Part shown: one piece after another, positions 47,438-55,190 of the stretch | Numbering within the stretch: the stretch's first letter is position 1 | Layout: every line of letters starts with the position of its first letter | Origin: Plasmodium relictum | Taxonomy: Eukaryota; Apicomplexa; Aconoidasida; Haemosporida; Plasmodiidae | Direction: 5' to 3' | Length of the DNA stretch: 64,000 nucleotides | NCBI RefSeq assembly: GCF_900005765.1 | Contig: NC_041687.1 | Span: 1,629,562 to 1,693,561, forward strand | The notes under the pieces: generated by a model | Told to the model about the DNA's origin: nothing | The model's input: only the letters and a program-made list of their open reading frames with translations | The model's database searches: none | Program-made: the position numbers and the translations under genes

Positions 47438-50326
47438 TTATTGTACAAGCCTTTTTAAATATAAGTATGCCCCTTTACCAATTTTATGGTTTATTTTATC
47501 TTCGTTTAAAGGAATATTAGGGGAAAAATAATTATAACTTTTATAAACTTTTTGAACAGTAATATTATATAAAATATGTATTTTATTTAGCTTGTTTATA
47601 TTATCTTTATCATATGTATTTTGCATTTTATGCATATGCGATGATATATAGTTCTCTATTAATGATAATCCACTTAAAGCATAACATGTATGATAATAAT
47701 CAACTTTTTCTTTAGGTTTATCCTTCATTCCTCCTTTATTACTTTGAGAACATAAAAGTAAATAAAGTTTTGCATGATTCATATTAAACAATATTTTTTC
47801 TTCAGTAACTTTATTTTTATTTTTAAAATCTTCTGTAAAAAAAAATTCATCTTTATGATTTTGATCATTGGATAAATTATTTTTATTGCATATTAAAACA
47901 TTATAATTGAATTCATTAGCTATAGATTCATTAGACTTATTTTGTTTATTTAAAGAAATTTTTTTTTCATTTTTATCACAAGAATAATATTCATTATTTA
48001 AGTTATTATAATTGTCATTTAAATCGTAAGTGCTAGTTAAATTTGTAATGGAATTTTCATGTTTGACAAAATTTGTATTTTTTTTTTTTAAATCATTATT
48101 TTCTAAGTTATTTAATTCATCGAAGTTTATGTAATCAAGCATTTTATATTTTTTATTCTCAGATTTTTTTTTTAGTTCATTTTGTTGAAATATTTGCTTT
48201 AATATATATATCTCATTAATTAAAAAAAAAATAGATCCAATCCAAAATGAGTAGCAAGAATCAACTAACTTATTTGTTCTCCCCATGAATGATCCTTCTA
48301 AATTGCTTTGCTTATTAATTAACCAACACATTAAATTATTTAAATTTATTTTTTCAATTTTCCCTAGAATACATAAAGTTGCTAAAGCACAGTAAGTATA
48401 GCCACCATGGCATTCTTGAAACTTTTCACTTGTAAATCCTCCTTCATAATTTTGGCAAGATAAAATATATTTCTCAACGTTTTTTTTTACTTTTTTTGTC
48501 AATATATGACACATAGAACATATTGATATAGCACAGTATGTTCCTCTCATGTCTATTTCTCCATTTTTGTGTAACCTAAATGAGCCATCAGCACATTTTA
48601 ATTTCAGTATATATGAATGTATTTTTTTTTTATCAAGAAAACTTAAAAAATTATTTTCATCATCATGCAAATATATAAAAACACAAACGGCAGCATATGT
48701 AGTTGCAATATGAGTATATTGATTTAACCCACCACCAAAACAGTCTTTATCATTTTTTATTTTATTTAAATAAAGGAACACACATTTTTTTATATAACTA
48801 AATGTTCCTTTACTTAATTTTTGCTCAATTTCAAAATCGTTATATAAAATATAAATAGTGTGGATGCACCAATAAAATATCCAAGGTTTGGATGCTTCTA
48901 AAAAATTTAACTTTAAATTTTTAAAAAAAAATATATCAAGACAAAATTTGAAATGCTTTTGTTTTTCCAATTGTAAATTTAATATGCTTATAAACTTATT
49001 TAATAGAACGGATGATTTATTTAATTTAAATTTAAAATTTTGTACAAATAGCATATTATCTTTTATCATAATATTTTCAAATTGAGAAGCAAAAGCCTTT
49101 TCATTACAATTAGTATTATCTTCATTTACACTTTTTTGCTTTAAAATCTCATTTATATAAATAATTTCATTATTTTCTTCATATATATCGTTTATATAAA
49201 GTTCTCCATATATGTTTTCATTATGAGTATTCAAAGAAATCTCTTCATTTTTAACTTTTTTATTACTTGAGTATAAATCTTTATTTGTAAATTCTTTGTT
49301 ATTTGAATGAATTTCTTCTTTTTTAATTTCCTTTTTTTTCTCCACTTTTATTAAATGTGAATTGTTAGCATAATCGTTTTTGTTTAAATTTTCATTTGTT
49401 CCATCATATTTTTCATGATATAAAAAATTATTTATACTATTGTATTTCTTTTCACTTTCATTAATTGATTTATCAGATTTATATTCTTCAATATATGAAT
49501 ATATACTGTTAAATGTGTAAAAACCTTTTGAAAAAAAGGAACTAATGTCATGAATATTTCCAACATTTTCAAAAATAAAAAATAAAATTAAATCAGAAAT
49601 TTCAACCTCAGAATTATTTAAAAGTATATCAATAATACTGGAAGAAAATGATGTATAATAAATACTGAGTATTTGTTTTTCTATTTTTTTTTTTTCTCTT
49701 ATTGTTTGTGTATTTCTACTGCAATTTAAATGGAAATTGAAAAAAAAATCTGAGATATTACTTTTTCCATATAAATTTTTCTCTTCATTTTTGTTTTGTT
49801 TATGTTTTATGTTTTCAAACAATTCATTATTTATACTGTTAGTCTTCACATTATTCATATTATTATAATTTAAGTTATTTATATTCATACTTTCATTTTT
49901 TTTGTTATTACTTATTTTATCTTTATTTTTATCTATACAGTCAAGTTTATGTATGTCTTTATCAGTATTATTAAAATATTCATTTTCCTCTTTTACATCA
50001 TTTTTGTTAAAGTTAAAAAGTTCAAATAATTCATCATCACTTGAATTTATAGAATCTTCACTTAAATTATCTGAGGAACTTAAATAACTATTTTTATCAA
50101 AATTGTAATCAGTAGTATAATATGATGTTTCCTTATTTAAATTAAATATGTAATTAAATAACAACTTGACAATATTTTCTATATATTTATAACATTTATC
50201 ATTTTCAAAATCTATCTTGTATCCGTCCTTTTTTTTTTCATATTTAATTAACTCAAACAATAGTTCTATTAAAATTTTTTTTTTATTATATCTCAGTATA
50301 TAGGTTTCATTCTTATCCATTTTCAA
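47438..50326 (-). CDS. FTB: Protein farnesyltransferase subunit beta
   Basis: This is the catalytic beta subunit, which with the alpha subunit attaches a farnesyl group to CaaX-box cysteines and is a studied antimalarial target. The single exon encodes 962 residues, about twice the human length because of Asn-rich insertions at the N-terminus and before the last repeat. Alpha-alpha barrel repeats show typical glycines: GGLNQYTHIATTYAA, CADGSFRL, DMRGTYCAIS, NYEGGFTS, ECHGGYTYCALATL and EGSFMGR. Zinc ligands are conserved: D689 and C691 in NKLVDSCYSFW and H879 in DYYHTCYALSGLSL. The Arg and Lys of GRTNKLVD, which contact the diphosphate in the human enzyme, are also kept. GGM at the last repeat precedes KDKPKEK, like LLDKPGKS in human. 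Specificity for farnesyl is supported by overall match to FTase rather than GGTase beta. Confidence 0.93.
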   Translation of the reverse strand: MKMDKNETYILRYNKKKILIELLFELIKYEKKKDGYKIDFENDKCYKYIENIVKLLFNYIFNLNKETSYYTTDYNFDKNSYLSSSDNLSEDSINSSDDELFELFNFNKNDVKEENEYFNNTDKDIHKLDCIDKNKDKISNNKKNESMNINNLNYNNMNNVKTNSINNELFENIKHKQNKNEEKNLYGKSNISDFFFNFHLNCSRNTQTIREKKKIEKQILSIYYTSFSSSIIDILLNNSEVEISDLILFFIFENVGNIHDISSFFSKGFYTFNSIYSYIEEYKSDKSINESEKKYNSINNFLYHEKYDGTNENLNKNDYANNSHLIKVEKKKEIKKEEIHSNNKEFTNKDLYSSNKKVKNEEISLNTHNENIYGELYINDIYEENNEIIYINEILKQKSVNEDNTNCNEKAFASQFENIMIKDNMLFVQNFKFKLNKSSVLLNKFISILNLQLEKQKHFKFCLDIFFFKNLKLNFLEASKPWIFYWCIHTIYILYNDFEIEQKLSKGTFSYIKKCVFLYLNKIKNDKDCFGGGLNQYTHIATTYAAVCVFIYLHDDENNFLSFLDKKKIHSYILKLKCADGSFRLHKNGEIDMRGTYCAISICSMCHILTKKVKKNVEKYILSCQNYEGGFTSEKFQECHGGYTYCALATLCILGKIEKINLNNLMCWLINKQSNLEGSFMGRTNKLVDSCYSFWIGSIFFLINEIYILKQIFQQNELKKKSENKKYKMLDYINFDELNNLENNDLKKKNTNFVKHENSITNLTSTYDLNDNYNNLNNEYYSCDKNEKKISLNKQNKSNESIANEFNYNVLICNKNNLSNDQNHKDEFFFTEDFKNKNKVTEEKILFNMNHAKLYLLLCSQSNKGGMKDKPKEKVDYYHTCYALSGLSLIENYISSHMHKMQNTYDKDNINKLNKIHILYNITVQKVYKSYNYFSPNIPLNEDKINHKIGKGAYLYLKRLVQ

Positions 50327-51211: not shown

Positions 51212-53287
51212 TTAAAGAAAGTTTGTAAGTACAAAAAAAGTTCCTTTTGAAATAAATTTCGAAACTTTGGCCTTTTCATTAATCTATTTAAGTAAAAAAA
51301 AAAAGATATAAATATATATATTAAATTTAAAATAATAATCAGTTCTTCTGTTTTTATGTTTACATTAAAATAATATTTAATTATATCATTATTATTTGTA
51401 CAAAGTATGGCGTCATTTTTCATGGCTAAATTGATAAAAAAATCAATATCTAATGAAAAGGTATAAATAAAAGAAATTAACATTTAAAAAATATAGAAAA
51501 ATTATAATATAATAAAAAAAAAATTTTTTTTTTTTATATAGTTACCTTTATCATTCATCGTAAATATTAATGAATTTATTTGTTTATAACCTATTTTTAG
51601 TAGTCCGTCTTTTTTTAATTCCTACATAAAAAAAATTTAACAATAATTTTAACAGAATATACACTTCAGAAAACTTAAATACTAAAAATTAAAATGAATT
51701 AATTAAATAGTACATATATATATTACATTAAAAATATATAAATGAAATTCAGGTGACTCTACAATTTTATTTTTGCAATCTTCTACTTCATAATACCACC
51801 AATGGGGAATATATATCTAAAGTTAATAGGAGAAGCATGCGTTTATATTCTAATAAGTACCGTTATATATATATTAATCATAAAGCATTCACGTTAAAAA
51901 TAAAATATATATATTAATAATGATATGAAGACATAAAATATGTTTATATAAAACTAAAAAATAACTATAAAAAAATATATCAGTGAATAATTTTTTAATT
52001 TAATATATATGCTATTTAAATTTTTTTTTTTTTTTGTAGTACAATTGGCTTAATTTTTTTTTTTAACAAGGATGTCACAGCGTATATTAGTCTACAAATA
52101 GAAATTTTTTTTTTATATTGAACTAAATACGAATATTCATCGTTTAATAAAACATCAAAATTAAAGTTTTTATCATCAATATATCCATCCATTCCTGAAC
52201 AAATATTTAAAGCATCTAAAGCAACATTTTCTTTTAATATATAAGTATCCTTTAAATAACTCTTCCATGTAAGCATAGTATGAAATTGTTTTTTTTCCAA
52301 TATTATTTTATCTTGATTTTCACTTTCTTCTTTTTCTTGATCATTTATTTCATTATTATGTTCAGTAGAGTTATCTTTAATAATTTCCTTTTCGTTTCCT
52401 ATACTGACAATACTACCTTGTTGAAGAAAATGATCATTTTCATATTCATTTTTTTCTTTGTAAAAATAGAAAAATTCAAACGAATATCTTAAAAGAATAA
52501 GATCATATCCTTTTAATATATCATATTCATTGTAATGAGATTTGTTGACACTTTCATCAGTAAATTTCTTTTCTAAATAATTTCTTTCACTATAATTATT
52601 TTTTTCATTTTCATCTGTTGTATGAATTAAAAATAAAATAGACATATTATCTGGCTCAAAAAAATCATTAATATATATCATACTTTTAATATTTTGTTTT
52701 TTTAAAAATTTAATAATATTAAGCTCTTTGGCATCAATATCATTATTTATTATTTCCTTTTTATATATAATTACTTGTTCTATATTTTTATACGAACAAT
52801 TATTAAAATTTAAGGTACAACTGTTGGTATCATTCAAATTGTTTTTTATATTATAATGAGAATTGATTAACAATATGTTACGTCTATTACTATTAACATT
52901 ATTAAGTAAATAATAAGAATAATTTAAAAGTGAACATAAAGAATCATCTAGTTTTAGCATCATATTCTCAAAAAAATAAAACCATGTATAAAAATTTATA
53001 CTGTTTTTAATGTCTTTATTAATTTTTAATTCTTCATACATATAATATTCATTTTGCTTTTCACTTTTAGTTTTATTAGTGTCAATTTTTTGGGATCTAT
53101 GACTTTCTAAATAATTTTCTTGGTTTATAATTTTAATTTTGATTTTACTTTCACCATTATTATTTATTTCCACTCCATTTTTGTCTTTATCTTTAATATT
53201 TTTATCACCATTACTATTGTCAACATTTTTCTTTCCATCGCATTTTCGTCTATTTTTACTTTTTCTGTTTTTTTGATAAACTCTCAT
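51212..53287 (-). CDS. NYN/Zc3h12a-type ribonuclease-like protein, five exons
   Basis: Exons 52043-53287, 51727-51816, 51546-51621, 51364-51449 and 51212-51283 splice in phase to 522 residues. The C-terminal third matches the Zc3h12a (Regnase) NYN/PIN-like RNase fold in order: VALDALNIC (D358, like VVIDGSNVA), ISICRLIYAV with KPIIYIPHWWYYE (like FSCRGILLAV with ITVFVPSWRKE), FNELKKDGLL (like LRELEKKKIL), DIDFFINLAMKNDAILCTNN (like [20 protein letters not shown]), and KFISKGTFFVLTNF (like RFIEERLLMYSF). D358 and D471 keep the expected catalytic positions. The second Asp of DDR is Ile (with D473 one place on), and SND reads TNN (D492 nearby), so activity may be altered. The N-terminal 340 residues are basic and low complexity with no recognised domain and no CCCH zinc finger. 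If active it would cleave RNA. Confidence 0.75.
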
Positions 53288-54544: not shown

Positions 54545-55190
54545 ATGTTGAACAAAACAAGAAGAATTTTTTTTAGCACAGCAAAAAATAGCAATTTATA
54601 TTTAACTCTTTCTTCATCAAGTGAATCTATATTTAGAAGTCAAATAATAAAAAGAGCTTCCTTTCCAGGTTAGCTAAAAATAAAAACTTAAGAAAAAAAT
54701 GCAAATTATAAATTTTTTTTTTTGTACTTTCTTTTTTTTAAGGAATTGAAGGATATTTTACTATAACAAATAACCATAGTCCTTTGGTTACTTTATTAAG
54801 AAATGGAATAATAACTGTTGAATTTGATGAGAAGGATAAAAAACAATTTTTTATTTCAGATGGAATATTTATTTATAAAAAAAGTAATGATAACAATAAC
54901 AATAATAATGCAGAAGTTGTAGGTGTTGAAATTGTACCCTTAGAATACTTAGACAAAAACAAAACAGTTAAAGTATTACAGCAGTTGTGTGCAGTTAATG
55001 ACGCTACTGATGACAAATGGAGAAAAATCAAAACGTTGTTGGGGTTATTTATTACGACATCTATATATTACTATATATATAAATATATATAATAGTAAGT
55101 ACCAGTATATAAAATACATTATTTTATTTATTTTTTTTTTTTTTTATCAGGAAAGAGTTATGTTCTTCTATTCTTAGAATTGCTTCTTGA
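54545..55190 (+). CDS. Mitochondrial F1 ATP synthase subunit delta
   Basis: Exons 54545-54668, 54743-55043 and 55151-55190 splice to 154 residues with all phases kept. The protein is part of the central stalk of F1 (counterpart of bacterial epsilon), linking gamma to the c-ring in the inner mitochondrial membrane. It starts with a basic presequence-like segment, MLNKTRRIFFSTAKN. The beta-sandwich motif FPGIEGYFTITNNHSPLV leads to LLRNGIITVEF. A C-terminal helix ends KTLLGKELCSSILRIAS. The third exon was chosen because reading through the second intron gives an implausible tail rich in Tyr and Ile. A short poly-Asn insert (about residues 92-98) lies between sandwich strands. It starts 1.26 kb from the divergent NYN gene. 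Confidence 0.88.

What the first reader, a model, noticed from the sequence alone, without database searches (positions are those of the whole stretch)
51212..53287. Hidden Zc3h12a/Regnase-type NYN ribonuclease across five exons
No single ORF shows the domain. Only after splicing four small exons does a collinear match to the Regnase RNase fold appear, including D358 in ALDALN, D471 in DIDFFINLA and the strand IIYIPHWW. Two acidic positions differ (DDR reads DID, SND reads TNN with Asp nearby). A Regnase-like nuclease would matter for post-transcriptional control in Plasmodium.
Basis: partly seen in the sequence, partly recalled or inferred. Interest (0 to 1): 0.75.

Follow-up and report, generated by a model that had tools for sequence, protein, structure and literature searches.

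The report
Divergent NYN-type domain in malaria parasites
A malaria-parasite gene of unknown function, split over five exons, ends in a domain that looks like a distant cousin of the RNA-cutting Regnase enzymes, but part of the usual cutting site is changed, so whether it still cuts RNA is open.

Summary
The five exons encode 522 residues, identical to the annotated Plasmodium relictum 'conserved Plasmodium protein, unknown function'. The last 192 residues align without a gap in 14 relatives (13 named Plasmodium, one unnamed source). Family models at their cut-offs do not see the domain, and both AlphaFold2 models failed (mean pLDDT 38.0, 42.6). Profile-profile comparison with 43 Zc3h12a-type domains does: probability 93.8%, score 49.5, against at most 29.7% and 29.1 in 1000 column shuffles. 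Four other families gave 0.6% or less. The signal is weaker with archaeal (42.1%, 0 of 500 shuffles as high) or metazoan members only (9.2%, 1 of 500). So the fold reading is probably right. 'Ribonuclease' is not shown. D141 and D225 of Regnase-1 appear kept (D358, D471). The D226 place is I, T, V or F in 14 of 14; the D244 partner is invariant N490 or invariant D492. Regnase-1 with D226N/D244N is dead in vitro (PMC4772114). No CCCH zinc finger was found. Plasmodium already has an annotated NYN protein. Verdict: a divergent variant of a known domain, catalysis uncertain.

The parts
52043..53287 (-). Exon 1 (1245 nt): N-terminal low-complexity part, conserved region of unknown fold (residues about 75-280), linker, then beta1 (D358), the conserved insertion and alpha1 of the NYN-type domain
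   Evidence: model; equals annotated protein; conservation
51817..52042 (-). Intron 1 (226 nt), GTACTA..TTTAG
   Evidence: P0017 reads on past the same donor position (ends KPMVLF), as expected of unspliced DNA (inference)
51727..51816 (-). Exon 2 (90 nt): strand YIPHWW and following residues
   Evidence: conserved in A1 and A3
51622..51726 (-). Intron 2 (105 nt), GTAATA..GTAG
51546..51621 (-). Exon 3 (76 nt): ELKKDGLLKIG and following
51450..51545 (-). Intron 3 (96 nt), GTAACT..TTAG
51364..51449 (-). Exon 4 (86 nt): DIDFFINLAMKNDAILCTNNND (first base of the D471 codon is in exon 3), holding D471, D473, N490 and D492
51284..51363 (-). Intron 4 (80 nt), GTAAAC..ATAG
51212..51283 (-). Exon 5 (72 nt incl. 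stop): INEKAKVSKFISKGTFFVLTNFL

Best explanation
SHOWN BY SEQUENCE: a five-exon gene with conserved relatives in Plasmodium, whose last about 170 residues (from residue 354) are a probable distant relative of the Zc3h12a-type NYN (PIN-like) domain. INFERRED: the C-terminal domain folds like Regnase-1, binds RNA, and cuts it with a divalent metal held by an acidic pocket made of D358 (strand 1), D471/D473 (start of helix 3) and D492 (after strand 4). The usual D226 is missing, and D492 sits two residues further on than D244 would. The conserved insertion between strand 1 and helix 1 would form a lid or RNA-contact surface, and the conserved region at residues about 75-280 would supply targeting or regulation. 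I put the fold at about 0.85, and the fold plus retained RNA cleavage at about 0.45.
For: Profile-profile comparison of the C-terminal region (14 sequences) with 43 Zc3h12a-type domains: probability 93.8, P 1.7e-7, score 49.5, collinear over 100 columns. 1000 column shuffles reach at most 29.7% / 29.1; the reversed profile gives 0.2%; other parts of the same protein 0.7% or less. Archaeal members alone: score 30.4, 0 of 500 shuffles as high. Against classical NYN (PF01936), PIN (PF01850), response regulator and Usp profiles it gives 0.5, 0.4, 0.6 and 0.2%. In a global alignment the domain is collinear with Regnase-1 from strand 1 onward, D358 on D141, prob 93.3. Pfam PF11977 is a weak collinear hit for two relatives: E 0.023 (residues 23-161 of the piece) and E 0.024 (24-171). 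Four Asp that fall at or beside active-site positions (358, 471, 473, 492) are invariant in 14 of 14, while only 7 of 16 Asp-majority columns are invariant (positions chosen after the fact). In 9 of 14 single-sequence alignments and in the profile alignment D492 takes the place of D244.
Against: D226, Asp in 34 of 43 comparison members, is I/T/V/F here in 14 of 14. In 5 of 14 single-sequence alignments the D244 place is Asn. Regnase-1 with D226N plus D244N lost all RNase activity in vitro (PMC4772114, passages). AlphaFold2 gave no usable model (mean pLDDT 38.0 and 42.6), and Foldseek against PDB showed no NYN or PIN protein in the 50 rows printed for each model (of 385 and 357 matches). The P. 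relictum domain piece itself matches, in Pfam, only OB_RNR_1st (E 0.016), and DUF7063 matches 5 of 14 pieces (best E 0.0017), all below cut-off. The match is weaker with subsets: metazoan members only 9.2%, with 1 of 500 shuffles as high; archaeal only 42.1%; single sequences 8.0 to 93.4%; Regnase-1 plus ZC3H12C 15.1%. The local profile alignment starts after strand 1 (61-170 of the piece), so D358 is placed only by the global and single-sequence alignments, and 1 of 14 of those puts D371 there instead.
Confidence: 0.45

Rival explanations
1. NYN-fold pseudonuclease: the domain keeps the fold and RNA (or protein) binding but no longer cuts; it works as an RNA-binding adaptor or scaffold.
For: The D226 place is non-acidic in 14 of 14, and N490, invariant, can be read as the D244 place; the laboratory double change at these two positions kills Regnase-1 in vitro (PMC4772114). 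Natural PF11977 members lacking both acids exist: the same 9 of 43 comparison domains, all from the Methanocaldococcus group, have Tyr at D226 and Ala at D244.
Against: D358, D471, D473 and D492 are all invariant in 14 of 14, more conservation of acids than a dead site needs; 9 of 14 single alignments and the profile alignment place D492 at D244. Loss of one such Asp need not end function: Regnase-3 mutants still lowered a reporter, though less (PMC8306088, passages).
Confidence: 0.37
2. The C-terminal domain is some other alpha/beta fold and the NYN match is a chance or analogous similarity of a Rossmann-like strand-helix pattern.
For: The Pfam and NCBIfam scans gave no credible hit: Pfam stays below its cut-offs wherever these were printed and no NYN or PIN model appears for full-length proteins; AlphaFold2 models are poor and Foldseek gave scattered hits with none at E <= 0.001; probability falls to 9.2% with metazoan members only.
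Against: 0 of 1000 shuffles come near; two Rossmann-like control profiles (response regulator, Usp) give 0.6 and 0.2%; the match is collinear from strand 1 to helix 4 in the global alignment.
Confidence: 0.15
3. Gene-model artefact: the four small exons are not joined in the mature transcript.
For: No RNA-seq was at hand; two annotated relatives (P. inui P0014, P. cynomolgi P0016) end differently in this part.
Against: The 14 other sequences used align without one gap across the four junctions; P0015 comes from a 2384-base contig that leaves little room for introns; composition of exons and introns differs.
Confidence: 0.03

Closest known systems
Regnase-1 / ZC3H12 family NYN (PIN-like) domain
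   Same: Collinear order as far as the profile alignment shows; Asp of strand 1 (D141 = D358), D225 = D471, LA motif of helix 3, (S/T)N after strand 4
   Different: D226 place non-acidic; D244 displaced or Asn; 23 extra residues between strand 1 and helix 1 in the alignment; no CCCH zinc finger found, protein ends at the domain
Zc3h12a-type NYN domains of archaea (PF11977 hits in the Thorarchaeota and Methanocaldococcus groups)
   Same: Give a stronger match alone (42.1%) than the three metazoan members alone (9.2%)
   Different: 31 of the 40 archaeal domains keep Asp at D226 and D244, the other 9 lack both; shorter strand 1-helix 1 loop
KHNYN / N4BP1
   Same: NYN domain at the C-terminal side of a longer protein (architecture recalled)
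   Different: No KH model was found in this protein by Pfam
Canonical Plasmodium NYN protein, PF3D7_0406500 (probable P. relictum counterpart L001; link recalled by synteny)
   Same: Same domain family; L001 scores over the PF11977 cut-off, 26.1 bits
   Different: L001 keeps IDGANV, TYDD and SND, an intact acidic set; one-sequence profile comparison of the two domains gives 0.1%

Membership tests
Zc3h12a-like NYN domain (PF11977) | Score over the Pfam cut-off (23 bits) | tested here: not met
   Best 14.9 bits; 2 of 14 domain pieces match at all, 0 of 14 full-length proteins
Zc3h12a-like NYN domain (PF11977) | Profile-profile homology, specific to this family | tested here: met
   93.8% against at most 29.7% in 1000 shuffles; 0.2-0.6% against four other families; weaker with subsets: archaeal 42.1% (0 of 500 shuffles as high), metazoan 9.2% (1 of 500)
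Zc3h12a-like NYN domain (PF11977) | PIN-like fold | tested here: inconclusive
   AlphaFold2 mean pLDDT 38.0 and 42.6; order of predicted helices and strands in the second half fits, confidence too low
Zc3h12a-like NYN domain (PF11977) | Asp at D141 of Regnase-1 | tested here: met
   D358, 14 of 14; so placed by the global profile alignment and 13 of 14 single alignments, outside the local profile alignment
Zc3h12a-like NYN domain (PF11977) | Asp at D226 | tested here: not met
   Position 472 is I6/T5/V2/F1; the profile and 13 of 14 single alignments give this register, 1 of 14 (index 2) puts D473 there
Zc3h12a-like NYN domain (PF11977) | Asp at D244 | tested here: inconclusive
   D492 in the profile alignment and 9 of 14 single alignments, N490 in 5 of 14
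Regnase / ZC3H12 proteins | CCCH zinc finger next to the NYN domain | tested here: not met
   No CCCH match in 13 of 14 proteins; one weak ZAP-like hit, E 0.098, in 1 of 14; the protein ends at the domain
KHNYN / N4BP1 | KH domain(s) N-terminal to the NYN domain | tested here: not met
   No KH model in 14 full proteins or in the 5 of 14 N-terminal pieces given
Regnase / ZC3H12 proteins | Metal-dependent endoribonuclease activity | not testable with these tools
   Needs purified protein
Classical NYN (PF01936) and PIN (PF01850) families | Profile-profile homology | tested here: not met
   0.5% and 0.4%; profiles from one archaeal group only

The most novel reading that the evidence does not exclude
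A Plasmodium-lineage NYN nuclease with a rebuilt metal site: the helix-3 Asp pair D225/D226 is replaced by an alternating D471-x-D473, a two-residue insertion moves the strand-4 Asp to D492, and a highly conserved 31-residue segment (362-392, 55% of columns invariant) between strand 1 and helix 1 forms a new substrate lid, giving malaria parasites an RNA-cutting enzyme with no close counterpart in their hosts.
Probability: 0.2. Interest if true: 0.6.

Novelty: new variant of a known kind. Interest (0 to 1): 0.42.

Why it matters
It gives a testable function, and four named residues, to a gene whose NCBI names are 'unknown function', 'hypothetical' or 'uncharacterized' in 15 of the 18 proteins found. 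If active, it adds a second Regnase-like nuclease to parasites in which at least part of the genome is said to be under post-transcriptional control (PMC4933991, start of abstract in a search listing). If inactive, it is a conserved pseudonuclease. It also shows how small exons and a degenerate site can hide a domain from family models.

Full report
WHAT IS THERE. The window lies in a 22.6-Mb genome (G000:C9:1629562-1693561). The neighbours are a prenyltransferase-domain protein (47438-50320, minus; its P. malariae relative P0018 is named farnesyltransferase beta) and an ATP synthase delta/epsilon exon (54742-55092, plus). From memory, this order matches P. falciparum PF3D7_1147500 to 1147700, so the counterpart would be PF3D7_1147600; that name comes from no call.

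SPLICING. The introns are 226, 105, 96 and 80 bases, GT..AG, and poorer in GC than the exons. For exon 2 the donor at 51726 is preferred to the one at 51762, because the residues between them are present in all 15 sequences of A1. In the C-terminal 192 residues 14 sequences align without a gap. P. inui (P0014) and P. cynomolgi (P0016) end differently in this part, probably because small exons were missed; I left them out of A2 and A3, and also P0017 (reads into intron 1) and P0018 (a farnesyltransferase fusion model). So 14 of the 18 proteins found were used: 13 from named Plasmodium and P0015 of unnamed source.

IS IT AN NYN DOMAIN. Single-sequence family searches do not say so: 0 of 14 full proteins match PF11977; of the 14 domain pieces 2 do (P. 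gaboni and a gorilla parasite), at 14.9 and 14.8 bits, under the cut-off of 23, but collinearly over most of the domain. The P. relictum piece matches only OB_RNR_1st, weakly (E 0.016). I therefore built a wider Zc3h12a profile: Regnase-1, ZC3H12C and KHNYN from PDB entries and 40 PF11977 domains from archaeal genomes, one from each of loci L121-L160. Against it the Plasmodium-type domain scores 49.5, probability 93.8%, P 1.7e-7. The best of 1000 column shuffles scored 29.1 and 29.7%; the reversed profile gave 0.2% and other parts of the same protein 0.7% or less. Control profiles from the same archaeal group gave 0.5% (classical NYN, 28 of 30 loci used), 0.4% (PIN, 23 of 30), 0.6% (response regulator, 23 of 25) and 0.2% (Usp, 11 of 12); partial or low-scoring loci were left out. 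These controls were built by a similar, not identical, route and hold archaeal members only, so the fair comparison is with the archaeal Zc3h12a members alone: 42.1%, score 30.4, 0 of 500 shuffles as high. The three metazoan members alone give 9.2%, score 24.9, with 1 of 500 shuffles as high, Regnase-1 with ZC3H12C 15.1%, and single Plasmodium sequences range from 8.0 to 93.4%. AlphaFold2 could not decide (mean pLDDT 38.0 and 42.6); only 14 similar sequences were available. I hold the fold at about 0.85.

THE ACTIVE SITE. In Regnase-1, D141, D225, D226 and D244 hold the metal (PMC8306088 and PMC12982082, passages), and the D226N/D244N double mutant loses all RNase activity in vitro (PMC4772114, passages); in Regnase-3 single Asp mutants kept part of their effect on a reporter (PMC8306088). 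In the comparison set D226 is Asp in 34 of 43 and D244 in 34 of 43, while D225 is Asp in only 8 of 43. Here D358 stands for D141 in the global profile alignment and in 13 of 14 single alignments (D371 in the other); the local profile alignment does not reach it. D471 stands for D225, and position 472, the D226 place, is I6/T5/V2/F1, followed by invariant D473; 1 of 14 single alignments shifts by one and puts D473 at D226. After strand 4, TNNND can be aligned without a gap (N490 for D244; 5 of 14) or with two extra residues (D492 for D244; 9 of 14 and the profile alignment). D358, D471, D473, N489, N490 and D492 are invariant in 14 of 14. A strictly kept set of acids argues for a used, re-spaced metal site; the loss of D226 argues for a dead one. 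I put retained cleavage slightly ahead, and stress that nothing here tests it.

WHAT ELSE IS SPECIAL. Between strand 1 and helix 1 the alignment needs 23 more residues than Regnase-1 has. The segment 362-392 around it is the most conserved of the eight stretches compared (55% of columns invariant; 64 of 192, 33%, for the whole piece). The N-terminal conserved region (about 75-280) gave only chance-level Pfam matches (14 full proteins; 5 of 14 pieces).

WHAT IS KNOWN. NYN proteins are already annotated in Plasmodium: PF3D7_0406500 is called a putative NYN domain-containing protein and a gametocytogenesis marker (PMC8552519, one passage). The P. relictum genome holds one PF11977 match over its cut-off in a search that reads no introns (L001), with IDGANV, TYDD and SND present. 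A frame beside it has a metallo-beta-lactamase-type match just under its cut-off (20.2 bits against 22.7); from memory this fits glyoxalase II, the neighbour of PF3D7_0406500. So the present gene would be a second, divergent member. UniRef names the P. gaboni relative 'PIN domain-containing' (name cut off in the listing), so an automatic system has already seen part of this. I found no paper on this gene: 0 papers for two inferred locus names, and none seen in the listings, of which the last three show only part of the papers found.

VERDICT. Observation confirmed. Interpretation partly supported: Zc3h12a-type NYN fold likely; Regnase-type ribonuclease unproven and, by the D226 and zinc-finger tests, not a Regnase family member. 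A new variant of a known kind, of moderate interest.

Noticed in passing
L001 (G000:C3:187791-191147): A canonical Zc3h12a-type NYN domain (26.1 bits, over the cut-off) with IDGANV and TYDD in one frame and SND in a following frame, next to a metallo-beta-lactamase-type frame; probably the counterpart of PF3D7_0406500 (link recalled by synteny).
   Followed up: partly
L122 and L153-L160: The same 9 loci, all of the Methanocaldococcus group, have Tyr at the D226 place and Ala at D244, yet score over the PF11977 cut-off: natural members without two catalytic acids.
   Followed up: partly
PF11977 matches occur in 95 of 227 genomes of the group of a Thorarchaeota genome and 9 of 36 of the group of Methanocaldococcus; many of the best lie near the C-terminal end of frames of about 580 residues.
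   Followed up: no
P0018: The annotated P. malariae farnesyltransferase beta subunit begins with part of this gene's product, a likely fusion error of the gene model or assembly.
   Followed up: no
window:52043-53287 (-), residues about 75-280 of the product: A second conserved region of unknown fold; AlphaFold2 draws four helices and five strands at low confidence, and Pfam gives only chance-level matches.
   Followed up: partly
window:57227-61099 (+): A 1290-residue frame with AMA-1 domain matches (Pfam, 3 stretches) in a stretch of higher GC (about 28%); from memory the neighbour MAEBL.
   Followed up: no
Pfam DUF7063 (PF23205) matches 5 of 14 domain pieces below its cut-off (best E 0.0017), nearly full length over the second half of the domain; it may itself be part of an NYN-like fold.
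   Followed up: no
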